IMG/VR virus record: IMGVR_UViG_3300028774_000007
Coordinates: 62,001-126,000 of that record
DNA length: 64,000 nucleotides
Reading direction: 5' to 3' (one strand)
Origin: a virus
The position numbers and the translations under genes are program-made. Below are positions 15,291 to 50,378 of the stretch, piece by piece (the stretch's first letter is position 1; each line of letters begins with the position of its first letter). The notes under the pieces were generated by a model. The model saw only the letters and a list, made by a program, of their open reading frames with translations, had not been told where the DNA came from and made no database searches.

Positions 15291-15650
15291 TTATAATTCA
15301 AATTCAAATTCTGTACCAATTAAATCTTTTAAACTATTGTTAATTTTATTAATTTCGTTTGTTCTTATCATATCTGCATCAGATATACTATATTCTGCTC
15401 TAACTCTATCAATAATATCTTTCATTATTTCTTCCTTATTTTTATTAGCTAAATATTGTAGACTTTTTTCAATACAATTATATTTACCAGTATCATTAAA
15501 TATAAGCTTAATAATCAATGTACTACCTTTTATATATTTATTAATAAAAGGTATTTTATGGTAAGTTTGTATTTCAGCGCCTAAATAATCATGAAATGGT
15601 CTTTCATAAGTGCCAACGTTAAATCCTGCATTTAATATTTTAAATTTCAT
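15291..15650 (-). CDS. Hypothetical protein
   Basis: A 119-residue mixed alpha/beta protein (MKFKILNAGFNVGTYERPFH ...), with acidic and helical C-terminal half. It overlaps the end of the SLOG-domain gene by 11 bases, so the two are translationally coupled. No conserved catalytic residues could be picked out. Confidence 0.6.
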   Translation of the reverse strand: MKFKILNAGFNVGTYERPFHDYLGAEIQTYHKIPFINKYIKGSTLIIKLIFNDTGKYNCIEKSLQYLANKNKEEIMKDIIDRVRAEYSISDADMIRTNEINKINNSLKDLIGTEFEFEL

Positions 15651-16191
15651 TTTTCAATTCCTTCGGATTAATAATCACAATATTTTTGTTCATACCTTTA
15701 GCGTATTTTACACATTTTCCAGTACCGCCTTTAGTCCCATCCCAAACAGCAATAACAATATCTGATTTATTTACCATATATTCATTACGCTTTTGCATTT
15801 TTTCAATATAATAAATATCTTCTTTTTGACCATCGACTTTGTATCCTTCTATCCTATCAACAAGGGTAAGGATATCTGCTTGATATAGTTGCGTTCTCCA
15901 TTTTTGAAAATCTTGCTTATTCCATAGGATATATTGTCTTTTAAATGGGACTGCAATTTCAGTTATAATATTTTTATAGGAACTCTTTAATTTATTACAA
16001 ACATAAAATGCCATTTGGTCAACACCTAGCGCCCCACCACAAATGAAGTGAAATTCTTCTCCTTCATTTTCTTTAATTATTTTTGTTACGGTTGTTGTAA
16101 TAGCAAGAATAACATCTTGATTTTTAGGTATATCCCAATTATAACCACCGAGTTTATTAGGTCTATGCCCTGTAAAACATATAGTAATCAT
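15640..16191 (-). CDS. SLOG-superfamily (DUF1273/YpsA-like) nucleotide-binding protein
   Basis: A 183-residue protein with the DUF1273 signature ICFTGHRPNKLGG at residues 3-16, the FICGGALGVDQMA Rossmann turn (about 49-61) and a late DIVIAVWDGTKGGTGKCVKYA segment. SLOG proteins bind nucleotides or ADP-ribose-type ligands and occur in phage and defence contexts. It overlaps the downstream and upstream genes by a few bases. Given the macro, NADAR and ART-like genes in this window, an ADP-ribose-related ligand is a reasonable guess. Confidence 0.8.
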   Translation of the reverse strand: MITICFTGHRPNKLGGYNWDIPKNQDVILAITTTVTKIIKENEGEEFHFICGGALGVDQMAFYVCNKLKSSYKNIITEIAVPFKRQYILWNKQDFQKWRTQLYQADILTLVDRIEGYKVDGQKEDIYYIEKMQKRNEYMVNKSDIVIAVWDGTKGGTGKCVKYAKGMNKNIVIINPKELKNEI

Positions 16192-16730
16192 TTATTCTCC
16201 GCTATAGCTGTTAAAATATCTAAGACAATTGCATTTACTGAACTTTGAACCCCATCAATTGCTGTATATTCTATATTATATTTATTTAAAATATCAACTA
16301 ATTCAACAGCTATTTCATCAGATTCTTGTTCTGTTTGATTCCTACCATTTGTGTCATATACTTTTTTGCGATTGATAAAGTAATTAAGATTGTTATATTG
16401 AGATAATTCATCGATAACTAAATTATCTAATGTTCTTGACTTCTTACCGTATTTGTTATTATAAAGTACAGTAAGAATTAAAGGTCTATCAGTTACAATA
16501 ACATCTACTTTGCCATTTACCCTAAATAATCTATGGTTCTGTTTAGCGAATATGTATAGTTCATCCTTAAAGGTCTCTTGCCTGTCTTCCCATACTAAGT
16601 CTTTAGCGAACTCTGTTACAAGTTCACAGCTAACTCCGAGCCATTTAAGGTGTGCAAACACATCTGCCATGATAGTGCTTTTACCAGATGATGGGCTTGC
16701 TATTAGATTAACTACTAATGTATTAGCCAT
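16188..16730 (-). CDS. P-loop ATPase/kinase (AAA_28/NadR-type)
   Basis: A 180-residue P-loop NTPase. Walker A is ASPSSGKST at residues 12-20. A DRP motif in VIVTDRPLILTVL plays the role of Walker B/substrate-binding, and a lid-like segment FINRKKVYDTNGRNQTE follows. This arrangement is found in phage ATP/GTP-binding proteins related to nicotinamide-riboside or nucleoside kinases. The substrate is not predictable. It overlaps the SLOG gene by 4 bases (ATGA), suggesting linked functions. Confidence 0.75.
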   Translation of the reverse strand: MANTLVVNLIASPSSGKSTIMADVFAHLKWLGVSCELVTEFAKDLVWEDRQETFKDELYIFAKQNHRLFRVNGKVDVIVTDRPLILTVLYNNKYGKKSRTLDNLVIDELSQYNNLNYFINRKKVYDTNGRNQTEQESDEIAVELVDILNKYNIEYTAIDGVQSSVNAIVLDILTAIAENK

Positions 16731-16745
16731 TAAATTCCCTCTTTC

Positions 16746-17183
16746 TTAAAAGCCACTTTCTTGCATAGTTGCATCAAATAAATTACATTCCAAATGAGTA
16801 TCATCAATTGCTATAATTTTAAGAGAACGATAATCCCATCTGCCGCAATAATCACCATTAAAATAAGAATTGTCACAATCAATAACTACTATTTTACTTT
16901 TTCTATTAAACGTACCATTTTTCTTTTTAGGGAAAGTTGAGATAAAGTCTACCATATTAACATTTTGTAATTTATTGACTTTAGCTATGACTTTATCTAT
17001 GTTTTCAATATACTCTGATTGAGTTAAATATATTCTTGATAAATCATCAAATTCCCTATACCCAAGTTCTACAAATTCGTCTTCTTCATAATCTTCTTTA
17101 AGTTCATCCAAAGCCTTTAATATTTTGCTAAAATCATAGTCTATAGATAATTCATTTTTACCAATTGTTAATTTATCTTTCAT
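16746..17183 (-). CDS. Hypothetical protein
   Basis: A 145-residue acidic protein overlapping the DHH gene by 11 bases. The N-terminal half is helical and rich in Asp/Glu (LDELKEDYEEDEFVELGYRE). The C-terminal half has a WDYRSLKIIAIDDTHLECNL strand-rich segment. No family recognised. Coupling to the DHH phosphoesterase gene suggests co-regulation. Confidence 0.6.
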   Translation of the reverse strand: MKDKLTIGKNELSIDYDFSKILKALDELKEDYEEDEFVELGYREFDDLSRIYLTQSEYIENIDKVIAKVNKLQNVNMVDFISTFPKKKNGTFNRKSKIVVIDCDNSYFNGDYCGRWDYRSLKIIAIDDTHLECNLFDATMQESGF

Positions 17184-18057
17184 TATTACACTCTTTCAAT
17201 AATAATTTTTTACTAGTAAATCCTGCGGCTGAAAAATGTCCACCACCACCAAAAGATTCAGCAACTTTACTACAATCGACTGTCTTATCTGTTGAGAATA
17301 AGGAATAGGTGTACTGTGTGCCATCAAAAACATAAACAACCACAAATGGATATTGATTAATCTTATCTCCAAAAATCCAACTATTTGATTTTTTATTTAT
17401 AACATAGCATTTATATCCTGCTAGTTCTGATTCATATCCAAAATTAGATAAATAATATTCATTATCCGAATCTATATATTTTTTGATAATATTTCCATCG
17501 TGAATAATATCGTCCAAAATATTTGTGTGTCCAAATTTATCTTCTGATAATAACCTATCCCATATTGGATTAGATGGTGTCATATTAAGGCTTTCAATCC
17601 CTAACTTGAAATATGTGGTCATATCTCCATATTTATAAATCCAACAATCATAATCAGAAACTAATTTAATATACATGGGACATTCTTCGAAACTTACGTT
17701 ATATAAAAACATATAAGTTAATGCCGCACCAGATATCTTATCTTGGATTAAACCTTTGATATTATGTAAATTTTTATATTTTTTAATTAACTTTAGTGAA
17801 GATATATGGTGGTCACACCACACTATATTAGTAGTTCTATTTAGTATATTTTGGAATTGGTCTAAAGTTGGTTCTGTGAAAGAATAGTCTACTATGTATA
17901 CCTTTTCATTATTAGATACAACATCTGGTAATGGTTTAGTATAATCAACTTCAAAGAAATCTTTTTTAGAAAACGCATACCCATGTTTCTCTTCGTAATT
18001 TAAAACAACTGATGCCGCACAAATACCATCCATATCATTATGATAAAAACATTTCAT
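17173..18057 (-). CDS. DHH/DHHA1 phosphoesterase (NrnA/oligoribonuclease-like)
   Basis: A 294-residue DHH-superfamily hydrolase. Metal ligands are visible in order: H6-N-D-x-DG (residues 6-11), a VDYSF motif (about 56-60), the eponymous CDHHIS at 81-86 and an SDYDCW motif. The C-terminal DHHA1 nucleic-acid-binding loop GGGGHFSAAGF is near residue 270. Relatives degrade short oligoribonucleotides (nanoRNA), cyclic dinucleotides or pAp. In a phage this could recycle RNA fragments or blunt cyclic-nucleotide signalling; the sequence does not decide. It lies just after the macro-domain gene. Confidence 0.88.
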   Translation of the reverse strand: MKCFYHNDMDGICAASVVLNYEEKHGYAFSKKDFFEVDYTKPLPDVVSNNEKVYIVDYSFTEPTLDQFQNILNRTTNIVWCDHHISSLKLIKKYKNLHNIKGLIQDKISGAALTYMFLYNVSFEECPMYIKLVSDYDCWIYKYGDMTTYFKLGIESLNMTPSNPIWDRLLSEDKFGHTNILDDIIHDGNIIKKYIDSDNEYYLSNFGYESELAGYKCYVINKKSNSWIFGDKINQYPFVVVYVFDGTQYTYSLFSTDKTVDCSKVAESFGGGGHFSAAGFTSKKLLLKECNNER

Positions 18058-18070
18058 TAATTTATTCTCC

Positions 18071-18487
18071 TTATAATTTACATACTAAAATTTTACAATC
18101 CGTATCTTTAAACACATCTTCGATAATCTGCCTAACCATTCCCCATTGAAGCCTGTCTCTTGTGCAACCTAACTTGTAAATCGCTATTTTTTCAATCTTC
18201 TTTTCAATAATAATATCTCTCATCATTTCTAATGATTTAGTCAGCGATTCATATGTAGGCTTATTCCAATACTTAGATTTTGTTACCAAATTAAATACTT
18301 TATTTACTAGAATACAATCTGGATATGTACGCTTACCATTTTGATGTAGGTATTGTCTTAGATGAAATCTTTTTTGGAACTCAACCGCTATTCCTGCCCC
18401 TAGTTCATAATCAGCAGAAATACAATGTGCTAGATAATATTCATTTGGAAGATTGAATAAATTATATTTTATTTCTTTAATTTTCAT
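18071..18487 (-). CDS. Macro domain protein (ADP-ribose/ADP-ribose-1''-phosphate binding)
   Basis: A 138-residue single macro domain. It has AHCISADYELGAGIAVEF (about 20-37), the adenosine- and ribose-binding loop of the TARG1/OARD1/Poa1 branch, and IAIYKLGCTRDRLQWGMV, the second ligand loop. Such proteins bind or hydrolyse ADP-ribose esters or ADP-ribose-1''-phosphate, the side product of Tpt1-type RNA 2'-phosphotransferases. Together with the NADAR pair and the ART-like gene near 46.7 kb it makes ADP-ribose chemistry a recurring theme of this phage. Start ATG 18,487 behind GAAAGGAC. Confidence 0.85.
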   Translation of the reverse strand: MKIKEIKYNLFNLPNEYYLAHCISADYELGAGIAVEFQKRFHLRQYLHQNGKRTYPDCILVNKVFNLVTKSKYWNKPTYESLTKSLEMMRDIIIEKKIEKIAIYKLGCTRDRLQWGMVRQIIEDVFKDTDCKILVCKL

Positions 18488-44232: not shown

Positions 44233-44430
44233 TTACCTCTTTTCTATGATACCCTGTGCATCATCTTCAAAAATTGTTAAATAGTGTTTATTATGGTTAG
44301 TTTTAATTATGTAATAACAATAATAATTGCTATCTACAAAATTAATACTATAATTACATCCAGATTTAAAGGTAAAATTTCCATTATCTGATTTCATACT
44401 ACAAAGTAGTTTACATTTATTTTTTCCCAT
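44233..44430 (-). CDS. Hypothetical small protein
   Basis: A 65-residue protein with beta-rich sequence (FTFKSGCNYSINFVDSNYYC) resembling a small SH3-like or OB-like fold. It overlaps the NADAR gene by 14 bases, so it is coupled. No identification. Confidence 0.6.
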   Translation of the reverse strand: MGKNKCKLLCSMKSDNGNFTFKSGCNYSINFVDSNYYCYYIIKTNHNKHYLTIFEDDAQGIIEKR

Positions 44431-44872
44431 TTTTAAGTTCCTCTCTAATAGCCATTAATCTTGAACAAAATTCTTGACGAGTTAATACAGTTTCGTTCTT
44501 CTTATGTTTACCTAATGAATGCGTTAGATTAGCATTTCCAGTAGCCAATAAAGCCCTTGCAAAGCCGTTATTCTTAGACAATGAATTATAAGCCCTGTCA
44601 AGTAAACCTTGATACTCTTGACTGTCTCTCTTGTATTCTACACCTTGCCAATATAGCACTTGCTTAGTCCACCAGTTCTTGCCGTATCCCTTTTTCTTTG
44701 CCCCAAATCCAACTAGCTTGCAAATTTCTACTTGCATATCCACGCTTTCATATTTTAGACTTTGTAGCCAACCTTCCATGCTGTTGCACAAAATCCCATC
44801 CATATAAAATGGATGGGGTGCAAAATTGGATAATGATGCCGCAGGATACGATTTTCCACTACCAATATCCAT
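44417..44872 (-). CDS. NADAR-family protein, copy 1
   Basis: Start ATG 44,872, behind AAATAGG, gives 151 residues. It has the NADAR layout. YPAASLSNFAPHPFYMDG with the SNF motif, then SMEGWLQSLKY (position of SEHYFQAxK), GYGKNWWTKQ, and the end RALLATGNANLTHSLGKHKK ... FCSRLMAIREEL (LLaTGnaxLxe-S-x-D). NADAR proteins are N-glycosidases or hydrolases that process ADP-ribose- or nucleotide-derived metabolites. It is directly downstream of the RNA ligase gene. Confidence 0.78.
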   Translation of the reverse strand: MDIGSGKSYPAASLSNFAPHPFYMDGILCNSMEGWLQSLKYESVDMQVEICKLVGFGAKKKGYGKNWWTKQVLYWQGVEYKRDSQEYQGLLDRAYNSLSKNNGFARALLATGNANLTHSLGKHKKNETVLTRQEFCSRLMAIREELKNGKK

Positions 44873-44895
44873 TTTTATATACCTATTTCTTTCTT

Positions 44896-46044
44896 TTATA
44901 AACCCCACTGTAATAAGAAATCATTGCTTACACATTTGAAAGATATACCTAAATCGTAATTTCTATATACGTAACCTTCTCTTAACGTATCATAAATATT
45001 AGATTTACCAGTTGAAAATGCCATAAGTTCATCAATCGTGTCTGGCAATATGTATTCAGTCTCAACGATAGGAACAAATTTAATACCATAATTAGAAAAC
45101 AAATCCTTTGCACTCACGCTATCAATCTTGCCGTTCTTTTCAGTGATTAAATTAAAAGCATAAAAATCTCTACCCTTGATATGATACTTATTCTTTTGAA
45201 TTGTTTCGCCAACTGTCTCGCCTTGTAACGTTATGTAATCATTATCTTTAATTAATTTTCTTAGAACTGATTCTACATTATATTTTAAAGCCATTTCCCA
45301 ATACACGTTATCATCGTAAAAACATTTCTTAGATGGTGTTGGCTGTGCAACAGAACGAGAACAAATTATAAACTTATACTTCTCTTTTTTGAATATCTTG
45401 TATAGTAAACCTTTGTTTGCTTTCTTTAGTGTGAATGTAGTTGAAGTACCATCCAACTTCTCCGTAACCATGAATGGCTCTTTATTTTTAAGTACACTAG
45501 GCATATTCTGTACTCTTTCCTCGTCGGTCTTAACAACCCAATAAGGGAACTTATTCGCATTAACCTTTGGTCTTAAAATATGTATCACAATATTCTTAAA
45601 CCACTGATGTTTGATTAAACGCTTGAACAACTTATTCTTAAATAGTTTCTTGTATCTGCCTTGAATCCTTGTTAACAAATCAACCTTTGGCGCTTCGTAA
45701 TCCTCTTGAATCTTAGTAATACCTAGAATATCTGTGACATCTTCACCAATCTTATGATTACCATCTAGTAAGATTGATATTGGTAATACTAACCCTTGAC
45801 TTAACGTATTACGCATTTTCATGCTTTTTACTTTAAAGCCCTTACCCTCTAGGAACTCAAATTCTGGATTATCAGATGGAACTCTTGAATCAATTTCTAT
45901 GTAAACACCTAAATCGCCATCTTTAAACTCGTCTTTTTTAGTAATAACATTCCAACCTAAGACATTGACTTGCTCGATTCTATCAGCACCCATGATTGGT
46001 CTGATATTATATACTTTCTCTACGTGTGCTAATACCCTTTCCAT
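44896..46044 (-). CDS. RNA ligase, DraRnl (Rnl5)-type with N-terminal OB module
   Basis: A 382-residue ligase. Residues 1-120 form an OB-like module (MERVLAHVEKVYNIRPIMGADRIEQ ... DGDLGVYIEIDSRVP). The nucleotidyltransferase domain starts about 165 with motif I TEKLDGTS (Lys196 is the AMP-bearing lysine), then motif III-like DFYAFNLIT, and later GYVYRNYDLGISFKCVSN (motifs IV/V). This is the DraRnl layout, an RNA ligase that seals 3'-OH/5'-PO4 nicks, preferring RNA 3' ends on duplexes. It is the natural partner of the kinase-HD protein and of RlaP-like and TROVE proteins in this window. Confidence 0.92.
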   Translation of the reverse strand: MERVLAHVEKVYNIRPIMGADRIEQVNVLGWNVITKKDEFKDGDLGVYIEIDSRVPSDNPEFEFLEGKGFKVKSMKMRNTLSQGLVLPISILLDGNHKIGEDVTDILGITKIQEDYEAPKVDLLTRIQGRYKKLFKNKLFKRLIKHQWFKNIVIHILRPKVNANKFPYWVVKTDEERVQNMPSVLKNKEPFMVTEKLDGTSTTFTLKKANKGLLYKIFKKEKYKFIICSRSVAQPTPSKKCFYDDNVYWEMALKYNVESVLRKLIKDNDYITLQGETVGETIQKNKYHIKGRDFYAFNLITEKNGKIDSVSAKDLFSNYGIKFVPIVETEYILPDTIDELMAFSTGKSNIYDTLREGYVYRNYDLGISFKCVSNDFLLQWGL

Positions 46045-46050
46045 TTTCTA

Positions 46051-46524
46051 TCATCCTTTTTTATTTAATATTTGTATTGCTTTATTTACATCTGTTTCGT
46101 TTAGTCCTAAACCATTGTACCAAGACGTTTTAACCCAAAATTTATCATATCCATATTTTTCCCAATCAAAATGGTCATCATCAAGTATTACAAATGATTC
46201 TATGTTATCGTGATTATCTAACCAATATTTAATTTCTTCTTCTCTTTTTCCCGTCGGACTTACATAAGTTGATGACATAATTTCAATATTATATTTCTGT
46301 AATATCTTAATAAATTCTTTACAGAAATCCATACATTCGTTATAATTAATTGACCAACCATATCTCCAACTTGATGACAATACTATTTTGCAACCAGTAG
46401 AATCAATAATATTTTTTAGAAATGGAAGTCTAGTCTCGTCAATATCATTATACCTATCTTTTCTGTTTTTGAAATAACTCGATGAGTTTAAAACTCCATC
46501 TACATCTAAAAATATTATTTTCAT
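46051..46524 (-). CDS. HAD phosphatase of the RNA-repair (HAD_SAK-like) type
   Basis: A 157-residue HAD domain. MKIIFLDVDGVLNSSSYF (Asp7, Asp9) is motif I, KIVLSSSWRYGW motif II, and SFVILDDDHFDW motif IV. The pattern 'DVDGVLNS ... LSSSWR' is that of the HAD domain in the multidomain 'Swiss army knife' RNA-repair proteins and their stand-alone phage homologues. It could remove terminal phosphates from cleaved RNA. It starts seven bases upstream of the RNA ligase gene, so the two are co-expressed. Confidence 0.8.
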   Translation of the reverse strand: MKIIFLDVDGVLNSSSYFKNRKDRYNDIDETRLPFLKNIIDSTGCKIVLSSSWRYGWSINYNECMDFCKEFIKILQKYNIEIMSSTYVSPTGKREEEIKYWLDNHDNIESFVILDDDHFDWEKYGYDKFWVKTSWYNGLGLNETDVNKAIQILNKKG

Positions 46525-46534
46525 TTTTTATTCC

Positions 46535-46792
46535 TTATAATAATCTTTTAATTTTAGTAATATTAATTGGTTCATGTATTATATACTGCCACCATGCTAA
46601 TTTTTCTACTAGTTCTGGATGCTTATTTATATCATAATTTACTTCCAATAATACACTACCATAACTTAAAGCTATTGACGGCTCTATTGATAAATATGTG
46701 AATCTACCATTTTCAGTTATACCAAATAAGTACCCATCTTTTTGTATTTGATTCCAATTATTTTCTGATGTACCATGATATAACCATAACAT
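46535..46792 (-). CDS. Mini ART-fold protein resembling Tpt1/KptA or ADP-ribosyltransferase core
   Basis: An 85-residue protein. LYHGTSENNWNQIQKDGYLF, RFTYLSIEPSIALSYG and VLLEVNYD follow the H-Y/L-S ... strand order of the ADP-ribosyltransferase superfamily and in particular the C-terminal half of RNA 2'-phosphotransferase (LYHGTS ... HLS ... VLLEVD). It is much shorter than either family, so it may be a minimal or inactive version. Context, between HAD/ligase and NADAR genes, supports an NAD- or RNA-2'-phosphate-linked role. Confidence 0.6.
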   Translation of the reverse strand: MLWLYHGTSENNWNQIQKDGYLFGITENGRFTYLSIEPSIALSYGSVLLEVNYDINKHPELVEKLAWWQYIIHEPINITKIKRLL

Positions 46793-46793
46793 T

Positions 46794-47123
46794 TTATTTT
46801 ACCTCACAACTTAACAATAACTTCTTATAATTGTTTTTAGCATATTCATAGGCTTGTCTATAATCAAGTACATCATTATTATAAGAAAATTTATATTTAT
46901 TCTCTGGACGTTTATTAAATTGTATAATTTCTGATAATTCAATCTCATCTAAATCTACAAATTTACAAGTAATATTTTCTATGCTCATTGGAGTATCTAA
47001 GACAATATGGTTTTGAATATATATTGCAATATTAACCCCTACGTAATATGTAATAGAATTAGTATCATTGATATCGAAACTTCTCGGTTCTACAATAATT
47101 GGTGTACCTTTATAATGCATCAT
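46794..47123 (-). CDS. Hypothetical protein
   Basis: A 109-residue protein, beta-rich at the start (YKGTPIIVEPRSFDINDTNS) and helical at the end. It overlaps the NADAR gene by 4 bases and is one base from the ART-like gene. No known family; the tight packing suggests it belongs to the same pathway. Confidence 0.6.
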   Translation of the reverse strand: MMHYKGTPIIVEPRSFDINDTNSITYYVGVNIAIYIQNHIVLDTPMSIENITCKFVDLDEIELSEIIQFNKRPENKYKFSYNNDVLDYRQAYEYAKNNYKKLLLSCEVK

Positions 47124-47536
47124 CTTAATTCTTCTCTTACCCTCATTAGAATCTTTCCTAGCTTGTTCTCACCCACTCCATTGACTGTGCCCCAAATATC
47201 ATCACCATGCTGATTCCCTTCTTCTAAAGGCTCATTCCCCGTAGCTAACAGCAATCGTTTAAGGTCTTCATGTTGTTCAAACTTAGCTTTTACAACTTCA
47301 TACATAACACTATCTTTGATATTTTCCCAAACAGGTGTTAGTTTAACGCTTCTACCTCTTGATTTTGCTTTTGACGGTGACATAGTACAGAACTTAATTT
47401 TCTGTTCCAACTGTGAACATTTCATAGATTGAAAAGCCGCTTCGCTATTTTGAAATGTTAGTCCTCTATATGTAACTTCCGTTTCATAGAAATTGCTTAA
47501 AAAGAAATACTGACCTCTAAATTCGTTAATTGCCAT
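47120..47536 (-). CDS. NADAR-family protein, copy 2 (YbiA-like)
   Basis: A 138-residue protein with an almost canonical NADAR pattern: FRGQYFFLSNFYETEVTYRG, FQNSEAAFQSMKC (SEhxFQAxK), WENIKDSVMYEVVKAKFEQH, and LLATGNEPLEEGNQHGDDIWG. In YbiA-type enzymes the Glu and Trp pair handle an N-glycosidic bond of riboflavin-pathway intermediates, and in conflict systems NADAR removes ADP-ribose from modified guanine. The two NADAR copies differ strongly, so they are probably not a recent duplication. Confidence 0.88.
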   Translation of the reverse strand: MAINEFRGQYFFLSNFYETEVTYRGLTFQNSEAAFQSMKCSQLEQKIKFCTMSPSKAKSRGRSVKLTPVWENIKDSVMYEVVKAKFEQHEDLKRLLLATGNEPLEEGNQHGDDIWGTVNGVGENKLGKILMRVREELR

Positions 47537-48169: not shown

Positions 48170-48712
48170 TCATTCTGTTACGAATTTTCTGGCATTGTGT
48201 GTTAATTCAGTTAATGTTTTAGGCTCAAAATCATTAACATCTACCCCTACGTTATAAGCATTCTTGCAATATGCCCACGGGTAGTTATGATAAAATGAAG
48301 GGTTATCATGTACATGACCAAATAGGTCAATTGAATTATGGTAAAACCCATTCCATTCAGCCATAGGGTAATGACATAAAATTACTTTATTATAATTATC
48401 TTCAATCTCTTCATATTTCTTAACCCATTTGAATAGACTTAAATCAAAATTTCTATCTTTTAGAAATCTATAATCATGGTTTCCCTCAATTAAAAATTTC
48501 TTACCTTTAAGACGACTAATAAATTGGTTAGCCATTAACCCGTTTCCCCAAACAACATCACCTAAAATATAGACCTCATCACTTGCTAGGATTTTCTGAT
48601 TCCATTTTAAAATAATAGTCTCGTTCATTTCTTCAATTGATTTAAAAGGTCTATGACATAAAGTCATAATATTTGCATGATTAAAATGCAAATCGCTTGT
48701 ATAAAATTTCAT
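48170..48712 (-). CDS. Calcineurin-like metallophosphoesterase
   Basis: Start ATG 48,712 gives about 180 residues. The metal-binding motifs appear in order: FYTSDLHFNHANI (D-x-H), EVYILGDVVWG (GDxxW), FLIEGNHDYRF (GNHD), VILCHYPM (H) and DLFGHVHD (GHxH). Phage relatives are small phosphodiesterases, some acting on cyclic 2',3'-phosphate ends or cyclic nucleotides. Here it could belong to the RNA end-healing set or to anti-signalling. The start is chosen where the DLH motif falls at residue 7. Confidence 0.87.
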   Translation of the reverse strand: MKFYTSDLHFNHANIMTLCHRPFKSIEEMNETIILKWNQKILASDEVYILGDVVWGNGLMANQFISRLKGKKFLIEGNHDYRFLKDRNFDLSLFKWVKKYEEIEDNYNKVILCHYPMAEWNGFYHNSIDLFGHVHDNPSFYHNYPWAYCKNAYNVGVDVNDFEPKTLTELTHNARKFVTE

Positions 48713-48717
48713 ATGTA

Positions 48718-48936
48718 TTAACCTAACCTTTGTCCACATTGATTACAATATACATTCATACTTATTTCTGTGTTACCACAATTTGGGCATGAGCATGAAT
48801 AATTATCATAAATTGGTCTTTTTGCGATATCTCTTCCAATTGCATTTACTGCGATTTTCATATAATCTTTTGTAAGCATAGCGCCATTTTCAGCCGCATC
48901 TTTAAAAAATAATAAAGCTTTCTCATCGTTACTCAT
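48718..48936 (-). CDS. Zinc-ribbon protein
   Basis: Start ATG 48,936, behind AAGGAGAACAAA, gives 72 residues: a helical N-terminal half and a C-terminal zinc-ribbon (CSCPNCGNTEISMN ... YCNQCGQRLG). Similar domains are tethering modules in bacterial and phage proteins. Unknown role. Confidence 0.7.
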   Translation of the reverse strand: MSNDEKALLFFKDAAENGAMLTKDYMKIAVNAIGRDIAKRPIYDNYSCSCPNCGNTEISMNVYCNQCGQRLG

Positions 48937-48946
48937 TTTGTTCTCC

Positions 48947-49477
48947 TTATGTATTAAGTTTTTTATCTTCAACTATATAATCAACAAGTTCTGGATTAAC
49001 CCCTTGCCATGAAAGTAAATTTTTTTCCATTTTAGTTTCAAGAACATCTTCAAAACTATATGTGATATCAAAACCAAATGCTCTCATCACACAACGATAA
49101 CAACGCTTATTTGGGCAATATGTACCATCGTCAAATATTTGGCTATCATCCCCGTACTTCCAGAATAATATAGCCGCACCAATACCAGAACTTCTTGAAA
49201 TTCCCGCATCACAATGAACCAAAATTGTATCAACTTCGTTTTCCCAACGCTTTACAAATTCAGCTATTTGATTAGCTTGTTCTTGTGTTATACCACCATT
49301 GTCATCTTCAACATCATCAAATTGCCAATGACCAATAGCCTTAATTTGAGGATTTTTAAAAAATCTATTTGGGGCATCACCATAAGTATGAATTGAAATA
49401 ATTGCAGTTGTTGGTATATTTTTTAAAGCAGAATAAGTTTTTGCCTTGTTCCTAGATAACACAACCACTTCTTTCAT
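48947..49477 (-). CDS. Cysteine-based protein/nucleotide phosphatase (PTP/DSP fold)
   Basis: A 176-residue phosphatase. The active-site loop VHCDAGISRSSGI carries Cys89 and Arg95 (C-x5-R), and the upstream WQFDDVEDD offers the general-acid Asp about 35 residues before it. It resembles tyrosine/dual-specificity phosphatases found in phages. The substrate could be a phosphoprotein, RNA 5' end (as for RNA triphosphatases of this fold) or phosphoinositide-like metabolite. It stands in the end-processing neighbourhood. Confidence 0.83.
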   Translation of the reverse strand: MKEVVVLSRNKAKTYSALKNIPTTAIISIHTYGDAPNRFFKNPQIKAIGHWQFDDVEDDNGGITQEQANQIAEFVKRWENEVDTILVHCDAGISRSSGIGAAILFWKYGDDSQIFDDGTYCPNKRCYRCVMRAFGFDITYSFEDVLETKMEKNLLSWQGVNPELVDYIVEDKKLNT

Positions 49478-49940: not shown

Positions 49941-50378
49941 TTATTTCCTTTCGCTAAACACTTTCTTAACTGTCTCTGAAATCAATTTATTGTCAGCCTT
50001 ACCTTTTAAAAGTGAAAAGTAAGTTTTCATTGCAGTACCAATGTTATCTCCTGCGGTCTTAGTCACATTGATTCCTTCTGAAATAATTTTATACAGTTCT
50101 TGTTCCGTCATTTGAGTAGGTACATAGCTTTGAAGATAAGCTTTTTTATTTAGGCATGAAGTCTTAATGTCTTCCCTGTTTTCCACAAACTCCAATGTCT
50201 CATTAATCTGCTTAATCTCTTTGCTGATAACTTCAATAATTTCCGCATCAGTCAGTTCCCTTTTCAATTCAATGCTTTTGTTTTTGATATTAGAAAGAAC
50301 CATTCTGATACATAATTTAATATCAGTGTTGTCTTCTCTGATTGCCTTGATTAATTCAATTTGTAATTTATTTAACAT
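49941..50378 (-). CDS. GatB/YqeY-domain protein
   Basis: A 145-residue all-helical protein that matches YqeY over its length. KAIREDNTDIKLCIRMVLSN, AEIIEVISKEIKQINETLEF, LQSYVPTQMTEQELYKIISE and GDNIGTAMKTYFSLLKGKAD are the recognisable segments. YqeY is related to the tail of GatB, the tRNA-dependent amidotransferase subunit that recognises tRNA. A phage copy next to a sigma factor and RNA-repair genes hints at tRNA binding; this is inference. First gene after the promoter at 50,411-50,439. Confidence 0.8.
   Translation of the reverse strand: MLNKLQIELIKAIREDNTDIKLCIRMVLSNIKNKSIELKRELTDAEIIEVISKEIKQINETLEFVENREDIKTSCLNKKAYLQSYVPTQMTEQELYKIISEGINVTKTAGDNIGTAMKTYFSLLKGKADNKLISETVKKVFSERK

What the first reader, a model, noticed from the sequence alone, without database searches (positions are those of the whole stretch)
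44417..47536. Two NADAR proteins and an ART-like protein around an RNA ligase; macro domain elsewhere
Two divergent NADAR-family proteins (44,417 and 47,120) flank the ligase/HAD/ART-like genes; a TARG1-type macro protein (18,071) and a SLOG protein (15,640) add further ADP-ribose- or nucleotide-binding folds. A Tpt1-type reaction makes ADP-ribose 1'',2''-cyclic phosphate, which macro proteins process, so these could be steps of one NAD-dependent RNA 2'-phosphate pathway. Alternatively NADAR and macro proteins may remove ADP-ribose placed on DNA or RNA by a DarT-like defence enzyme.
Basis: inference. Interest (0 to 1): 0.75.

Follow-up and report, generated by a model that had tools for sequence, protein, structure and literature searches.

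The report
ADP-ribose erasers inside phage RNA-repair island
A large bacteriophage carries two different enzymes predicted to strip ADP-ribose off guanine, plus a tiny relative of ADP-ribose-attaching enzymes, next to a kit for mending broken RNA, which suggests it repairs both the cuts and the chemical tags that bacteria use against phages.

Summary
In a 143-kb virus record, 44417-47536 (minus strand) encodes a T4 gp30.3-type NADAR, an RNA ligase, a "Swiss-army-knife" HAD phosphatase, an 85-residue ART-like protein, an unknown ORF and a YbiA-type NADAR. Both NADARs keep the catalytic Glu/Lys. T4 gp30.3, the tested relative of one, removes ADP-ribose from guanine in DNA and RNA in vitro. The 85-residue protein matches only the NAD lobe of KptA/Tpt1; the RNA lobe and three of four catalytic tetrad residues are missing, so the Tpt1 2'-phosphate pathway is not supported. 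The macro protein at 18071 is TARG1-like with an intact Lys/Asp dyad. The wider region (35.5-49.5 kb) is an RNA-repair island. Best reading: an RNA-repair kit extended with ADP-ribose erasers against host ART defences, function inferred from families. In relatives the stable core is ligase, nucleotidyltransferase and kinase; gp30.3 is absent beside an 84%-identical ligase, and no other contig examined has the full arrangement. The general idea is already in print (Iyer, Burroughs, Aravind). New here: two NADAR subfamilies together, and a free-standing NAD-lobe-sized ART in YbiA-then-ART order, resembling the YarT-YbiA pair.

The parts
47120..47536 (-). NADAR, YbiA subfamily (catalytic Glu at third site; E32, Q36, K39, E106)
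   Evidence: PF08719 2.7e-27; YbiA 2b3w and NADAR 8bau matches; alignment A1
46794..47123 (-). 109-aa ORF of unknown function between NADAR and ART-like gene, ATGA overlap with NADAR
   Evidence: no family match of note; sequence
46535..46792 (-). 85-aa ART-like protein, corresponds to the NAD lobe of KptA/Tpt1 only (H6, T8, Y33; Q69 proposed third site)
   Evidence: NCBIfam RNA 2'-phosphotransferase 0.012; KptA HMM rank 2 of 12,802 ORFs, copies of itself counted once; alignments A2, A3; model pLDDT 73 with KptA rows, ART folds fill the list
46051..46524 (-). HAD_SAK_2 phosphatase (DVDGVLN motif), predicted RNA-end phosphatase
   Evidence: PF18143 2.5e-28
44896..46044 (-). ATP-dependent RNA ligase with N-terminal OB domain (EKLDG motif)
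   Evidence: PF21189 7e-30, PF09414 1e-18; PHROG 968 6e-65; TIGR02306 3e-35, below its cut-off
44417..44872 (-). T4 gp30.3-type NADAR (His at third site); start re-set from 44908 to 44872
   Evidence: PF08010 2e-53; aligned with T4 gp30.3
18071..18487 (-). TARG1-type (ALC1-like) macrodomain hydrolase, dyad K70/D111
   Evidence: 4j5r E=7e-26 with alignment; DarG 1.5e-13
15640..16191 (-). YpsA-family SLOG protein
   Evidence: PF06908 1e-19
35500..36996 (-). vWA/DUF2828 RNA-binding protein (a TROVE-like role is my inference)
   Evidence: PHROG 850 4.5e-129; PF11443, PF25043 and a sub-threshold vWA hit
37611..38516 (-). polynucleotide kinase fused to C-terminal HD domain (RNA end healing)
   Evidence: TIGR04075 8e-14, CCA-enzyme HD region 1e-5, both far below the models' cut-offs; PHROG 505
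39526..40359 (-). nucleotidyltransferase, conserved near the ligase in relatives
   Evidence: PHROG 388 4.7e-8; L076 and L077 synteny
48170..48739 (-). calcineurin-like phosphoesterase
   Evidence: PHROG 547 4e-43
48947..49477 (-). dual-specificity / PTP-SAK-like phosphatase
   Evidence: DSPc 1e-7, PTP-SAK 0.002, both below cut-off

Best explanation
The locus is part of a phage RNA-repair island to which ADP-ribose erasers have been added. Island core (inferred from families): the kinase-HD protein, HAD and phosphoesterase heal RNA ends, the nucleotidyltransferase replaces lost bases, and the OB-fold ligase reseals, reversing host anticodon or other endoRNase attack. The two NADARs hydrolyse the N-glycosidic bond of ADP-ribose on guanine in RNA or single-stranded DNA, reversing a host ART toxin; the TARG1-type macro elsewhere could cover phosphate-end or thymidine ADP-ribose. 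The 85-residue protein is a minimal ART-superfamily NAD lobe whose target is unknown. Shown here: gene identities, conserved catalytic residues, tight packing, and linkage of ligase, nucleotidyltransferase and kinase in a relative. Inferred: every activity in this phage, the substrates, and that the enzymes act together.
For: NADAR families and active-site residues intact. T4 gp30.3 active on G-ADPr DNA and G-ADPr RNA. RNA-repair genes around them. L076, with an 84%-identical ligase, keeps the nucleotidyltransferase and kinase homologues; L077 has nucleotidyltransferase, phosphoesterase and ligase close together. L166 pairs the kinase homologue with a phosphoesterase, tRNA-like genes and the vWA protein. 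A TARG1-type macro lies 2.7 kb from a ligase homologue in L125 and near one in L126. No DarT match in the record, so a host ART is the likelier target. Human TARG1 reverses phosphate-end ADPr RNA.
Against: T4 gp30.3 and YbiA did not protect cells from DarT1, so the natural substrate is open. Iyer et al. favour soluble ADPr derivatives for phage NADARs. NADAR and gp30.3 are not linked to ligase or HAD within 6 kb in 68 other NADAR loci and 12 other gp30.3 loci (that ligase model was built from few sequences). gp30.3 is absent next to the ligase in L076. The macro is 26 kb away in this phage. No activity was measured.
Confidence: 0.5

Rival explanations
1. The YbiA-type NADAR and the 85-aa ART form a phage-borne writer-eraser (toxin-antitoxin-like) pair, as in myxobacterial YarT-YbiA, and the repair genes beside it are unrelated in function.
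For: Same order: YbiA-type NADAR upstream of a small ART. YarT is described as a small globular ART with an H-Y-[E/D/Q] motif; the window protein has H6, Y33 and possibly Q69. The same block, with 100% identical ART and NADAR, is in contigs from two other metagenome datasets, so it is not a sequencing slip.
Against: An unknown ORF lies between them. No match to an HYD1-type family was listed. The ART is found only in this phage species. Toxicity untested.
Confidence: 0.2
2. The NADARs act on soluble NAD-derived signals or toxins (cyclic ADPR variants, ADPR phosphates) made by host abortive-infection systems, not on nucleic acids.
For: Iyer et al. argue this for phage NADAR/Macro/SLOG sets; this phage has NADAR, macro and SLOG.
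Against: Published NADAR activity, T4 gp30.3 included, is on guanine ADP-ribose. In the parts of papers read here I saw no test on cyclic ADPR.
Confidence: 0.15
3. NAD-dependent Tpt1 pathway: the 85-aa protein removes RNA 2'-phosphate and NADAR/macro process the ADP-ribose cyclic phosphate.
For: NAD-lobe similarity to KptA, in a locus with RNA ligase and phosphatase.
Against: No RNA lobe; tetrad Arg18, His19, Arg68 are in the missing lobe; the position of KptA His is Tyr33; no PF01885 in the record (a like search with PF01661 also missed the known macro, so this negative is weak); NADARs inactive on phosphate-end ADPr.
Confidence: 0.05
4. The clustering is incidental: gp30.3 and NADAR are mobile early accessory genes that happen to sit beside repair genes.
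For: Two NADARs this close is not significant alone; gp30.3 is absent in L076; no conserved linkage; of 8 other gp30.3 records scanned only one (G008) has a separate NADAR over the cut-off.
Against: RNA-ligase matches are frequent in this sample (18 of 26 records: this phage's own G001, the ligase-selected G002, 8 gp30.3 and 16 NADAR records, no random control).
Confidence: 0.1

Closest known systems
T4 gp30.3 NADAR (PMC11125620, PMC11833690)
   Same: Family PF08010, His at third catalytic site, Glu/Lys pair kept
   Different: Host and gene setting; in T4 it sits by 30.2, 30.1 and DNA ligase 30 with the alt ART gene beyond; here beside an RNA ligase
YarT-YbiA pair (PMC11125620)
   Same: YbiA-type NADAR upstream of a small ART
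   Different: Intervening ORF; ART matched best by the KptA NAD lobe; not tested for toxicity
KptA/Tpt1
   Same: LYHGT motif and whole NAD-lobe length (83-94 aa in the 8 KptAs against 85 here)
   Different: No RNA lobe, no Arg-His-Arg, Tyr for His at second site
DarTG antitoxins (NADAR DarG1, macro DarG2)
   Same: NADAR and macro eraser folds
   Different: No DarT match in the record; the macro is TARG1-like with a Lys/Asp dyad
Phage RNA-repair gene sets described by Iyer, Burroughs, Aravind (PMC7824862, PMC9503650)
   Same: Ligase, HAD-SAK, nucleotidyltransferase, kinase, phosphoesterase, RNA-binding protein, with NADAR/macro/SLOG in the same genome
   Different: Two NADAR subfamilies flank the ligase/HAD/ART genes directly, with a free-standing NAD-lobe ART

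Membership tests
NADAR superfamily (47120 protein) | PF08719 match with catalytic Glu and Lys, third acid residue | tested here: met
   2.7e-27; E32, K39, E106 aligned with YbiA
gp30.3 NADAR subfamily (44417 protein) | PF08010 match, Glu/Lys pair, His at third site | tested here: met
   2.1e-53; E45, K52 and LTHS aligned with T4 gp30.3
NADAR superfamily | guanine-ADP-ribose hydrolase activity | not testable with these tools
   published for relatives such as T4 gp30.3 and YbiA, not for these proteins
KptA/Tpt1 | N-terminal RNA lobe with Arg18/His19/Arg68 equivalents | tested here: not met
   85-aa ORF begins just before the NAD lobe's LYHGT; no PF01885 match in the record
KptA/Tpt1 | NAD lobe with LYHGT and VHLS motifs and the tetrad's fourth residue (Arg) | tested here: inconclusive
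   LYHGT met; VHLS is TYLS; tetrad Arg not aligned, R30 one column off
ART superfamily | ART fold | tested here: inconclusive
   pLDDT 73.2 with KptA-like rows against 44.7 alone; Foldseek best E 0.033; VIA Z up to 7.2, all 50 rows ARTs; the KptA rows make this partly circular
ART superfamily | sequence similarity above chance | tested here: met
   13.8 bits against best of 5000 shuffles 8.7; rank 2 of 12,802 ORFs (its identical copies counted once), E=0.017; signal mostly in LYHGT..N..I..G
YarT-YbiA pair | YbiA-type NADAR directly upstream of ART | tested here: inconclusive
   order kept, one ORF between
YarT-YbiA pair | ART toxic in E. coli and rescued by its NADAR | not testable with these tools
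   needs an experiment
DarTG | DarT toxin gene adjacent | tested here: not met
   no PF14487 match in the record at E<=10
TARG1/ALC1-like macrodomain | Lys84 and acidic residue 125 dyad | tested here: met
   K70 and D111, spacing 41 as between 84 and 125, counted by hand; role of the dyad, which prints Glu125 where the aligned chain has Asp
HAD_SAK_2 | family match and DxDG motif | tested here: met
   2.5e-28, DVDGVLN
ATP-dependent RNA ligase | nucleotidyltransferase domain with KxDG | tested here: met
   PF09414 1e-18, EKLDG (motif recalled)

The most novel reading that the evidence does not exclude
The phage encodes a complete write-and-erase ADP-ribose cycle tied to RNA mending: an 85-residue NAD-lobe-only ART modifies RNA (an end phosphate, as a KptA-like enzyme can, or guanine), the YbiA-type and gp30.3-type NADARs remove base marks and the TARG1-type macro removes end marks, so that ADP-ribose serves as a reversible tag or block during end healing and ligation. 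It would be among the smallest ARTs known (smaller than the 113-residue TreTu chain; otherwise recalled).
Probability: 0.1. Interest if true: 0.85.

Novelty: new variant of a known kind. Interest (0 to 1): 0.5.

Why it matters
What phage NADARs do is an open question: T4 gp30.3 has the chemistry but not the DarT1 rescue. A locus that puts two NADAR subfamilies in one compact block with an RNA ligase, end-healing enzymes and a candidate minimal ART makes RNA, rather than DNA alone, a testable substrate, and offers a cognate ART to test against its own erasers. If the 85-residue protein is active, it would show how little of the ART fold is needed.

Tried and rejected
Tpt1 pathway: rejected (missing lobe and tetrad residues). 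DarTG in the phage itself: rejected. Relatives of the 85-aa protein: none in 50,697 phage records (at E<=10 only three unconvincing records), one weak hit in 72,556 plasmids, none in genome contigs, two same-species contigs in IMG/VR.

Structure of the 85-aa protein alone failed (pLDDT 44.7). An ART-like ORF in L089, 3.4 kb from a HAD gene, was first taken as support for an ART-HAD link; I dropped it as too distant and too weakly similar.

In one search the MACRO rows are an artefact (a stale result file repeated the previous query) and were discarded. The NADAR and gp30.3 models there converged on each other (104 hits each), which shows homology but cannot separate the subfamilies. In one search two of the four NADAR hits (G006, G007) are gp30.3 genes hit by the NADAR model and were not counted; both weak hits are NADARs and were not counted. 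A search of the record with PF01661 missed the TARG1-type macro, so family negatives in this record are weak. One search has no random-phage control. Families not listed are not excluded.

Promoter and terminator counts (119 and 4) do not exceed shuffles (means 113.8 and 3.9), so no operon claim rests on them.
Full report
What was checked. The window is 62001-126000 of a 143,233-base virus record. No phage record matched the 42-50.5 kb stretch in DNA. The genes from 63.9 kb down to about 12 kb run mostly on the minus strand.

The two NADARs. 47120-47536 matches PF08719 (2.7e-27), and 44417-44908 matches PF08010, the T4 gp30.3 family (2.1e-53). They match different PHROGs (1017 and 652) and are 22% identical. 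Searches that start from either protein converge on both. In alignment A1, which holds T4 gp30.3 and E. coli YbiA, the catalytic Glu and Lys are invariant; the third site is Glu in the 47120 protein and His in the 44417 protein and in T4 gp30.3. PMC11543638 (passages and one section read) assigns Glu to the YbiA subfamily and His to phage NADARs. Neither is missing its catalytic residues. The gp30.3-type gene is listed from GTG 44908, overlapping the ligase, but most aligned relatives start at the equivalent of 44872.

What is known of activity. PMC11125620 (sections 2.1, 2.2 and Discussion read): all four tested NADAR types, T4 gp30.3 included, remove ADP-ribose from guanosine in DNA, but phage NADAR and YbiA did not rescue DarT1 toxicity. 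PMC11833690 (abstract and two Results sections read): NADARs, T4's included, act on guanosine-ADPr RNA; NADAR did not act on phosphate ends, whereas human TARG1 did.

The 85-residue protein. It has no close relatives outside this phage species. Its best family hits in two independent libraries are both ART superfamily: PARP, E=0.052, and RNA 2'-phosphotransferase, E=0.012. BLASTP against E. coli KptA gives 29% over 73 residues, E=1e-5 for the single comparison. A model of eight KptAs ranks it second of 12,802 ORFs, its identical copies counted once (E=0.017, 14.1 bits there; 13.8 bits against a best of 8.7 among 5000 shuffles), though most of the signal is in LYHGT..N..I..G. From LYHGT to the C-terminus the eight KptAs have 83-94 residues, so the window protein is the size of an NAD lobe alone. 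PMC6333775 (passages read) places three of the four tetrad residues in the N-terminal RNA lobe, which is absent here. Where KptAs have VHLS this protein has TYLS, which gives an H-Y pattern; Q69 as third residue is my proposal. Modelled alone it fails; with KptA-like rows pLDDT reaches 73.2 and pTM 0.65, and all 50 rows of the second-look list are ARTs, Z up to 7.2, including the 113-residue TreTu and the RhsP2 toxin domains. That test is partly circular, and Z under 8 is not strong by itself.

The macro and SLOG proteins. 18071-18487 is TARG1-like (E=7e-26 to 4j5r); K70 and D111 align with the TARG1 dyad, spaced 41 residues, by hand count (Lys84 mechanism from PMC7050489, passages). 15640 is a YpsA SLOG. 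The macro is 26 kb from the ligase here, but 2.7 kb from a ligase homologue in L125 and near one in L126.

The surroundings. Between 35.5 and 49.5 kb lie a vWA/DUF2828 RNA-binding protein, a polynucleotide kinase with an HD region, a nucleotidyltransferase, the OB-fold RNA ligase, HAD_SAK_2, a calcineurin-like phosphoesterase and a DSP-type phosphatase. L076, with an 84%-identical ligase, keeps homologues of the nucleotidyltransferase (62%) and kinase (63%) but has no gp30.3 after the ligase; its contig starts at the ligase, so the other side cannot be seen. L077 has a nucleotidyltransferase homologue, a phosphoesterase-like ORF and the ligase close together. L166 groups a kinase homologue, a phosphoesterase, tRNA-like genes and the vWA protein. 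I read the repair genes as the older association and the NADARs and ART as additions in this phage.

Linkage counts. Within 6 kb, no other contig combined ligase or HAD with a NADAR among 68 NADAR loci and 12 gp30.3 loci of other phages; of 17 HAD loci of other phages one (L094) has a weak NADAR match 2.5 kb away. On whole records, of 10 examined (this phage's own species, one ligase-selected, eight gp30.3-selected) 2 carry a separate NADAR over the cut-off: the own species and G008. Of 20 others (16 NADAR-selected, 4 selected by macro, KptA or HAD) 0 carry gp30.3 over the cut-off. Having both subfamilies is therefore uncommon in this sample. RNA-ligase matches occur in 18 of 26 records, without a random control.

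Judgement. The mechanism I think likeliest is removal of host-made ADP-ribose from guanine, alongside end repair of cleaved RNA. Against it: T4 gp30.3 does not rescue DarT1, Iyer et al. favour soluble ADPr targets (PMC9503650, sections 3.4.3, 3.7.3, part 1 of 3.7.4 and passages), and linkage is not conserved. The pairing of a YbiA-type NADAR with a small ART recalls YarT-YbiA and is the most testable alternative.

Other papers. PMC11481870 (abstract and passages): phage anti-DarT proteins AdfA and AdfB are described there as direct DarT inhibitors, not erasers, so NADAR or macro erasers would be a different counter-defence.

Print status. The general prediction that phage NADAR, macro and SLOG proteins serve RNA repair or anti-signalling is in PMC7824862 (passages) and PMC9503650. 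Searches for NADAR with RNA ligase, phage and operon (3 papers listed) and for YarT (1 paper listed) showed no title describing this arrangement; nothing wider is claimed.

Noticed in passing
window 37115-37325 (-): tRNA-like RNA: Rfam tRNA 31.1 bits at 37122-37184 (cut-off 29), missed by ARAGORN; 9-bp acceptor-like stem, T-arm, hairpin in place of an anticodon arm, fold z=-2.75, an 11/12 sigma70-like promoter at 37359; just upstream of the vWA RNA-binding protein gene. Possibly a Y-RNA/tRNA mimic or a decayed tRNA. L166 has tRNA-like genes near its vWA gene; L164 and L165 show none.
   Followed up: partly
window 57881-59164 (-): Adenylosuccinate-synthetase-like gene (PF00709 3e-40; PurZ model 4e-15, below its cut-off); could relate to 2-aminoadenine DNA.
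   Followed up: no
window 17173-18057 and 16188-16730 (-): DHH phosphoesterase (PHROG 4771 1e-48) directly beside the TARG1-type macro, and nearby a small kinase with a weak NadR match.
   Followed up: no
L089:9847-10233: Small ORF with an LYHVT ART-like motif, top hit of the KptA model (E=1e-4), in a phage contig with a HAD_SAK gene 3.4 kb away.
   Followed up: partly
L135:3989-4225: Short KptA-like ORF that lacks the LYHGT segment, in a human-gut phage scaffold marked unverified; may be a fragment.
   Followed up: no
L019 and L079 (SPbeta-like): A match to the window SLOG protein lies about 2.5 kb upstream of a NADAR of the 47120 type in SPbeta-like phages.
   Followed up: no
L114 (T4 122-130 kb): In T4 the NADAR gene 30.3 sits near a ligase (gene 30) and an ART (alt), a loose parallel to ligase, ART-like and NADAR here.
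   Followed up: no
window 50439-50411 and 42328-42300 (-): Two perfect 12/12 sigma70-like promoters bracket the region that holds both NADARs; the total promoter count is at shuffle level.
   Followed up: no
window 41557-42279 and 49941-50378 (-): R2K-clade ATP-grasp protein and a YqeY-like protein in the same block; a YqeY homologue also follows the vWA gene in L165.
   Followed up: no
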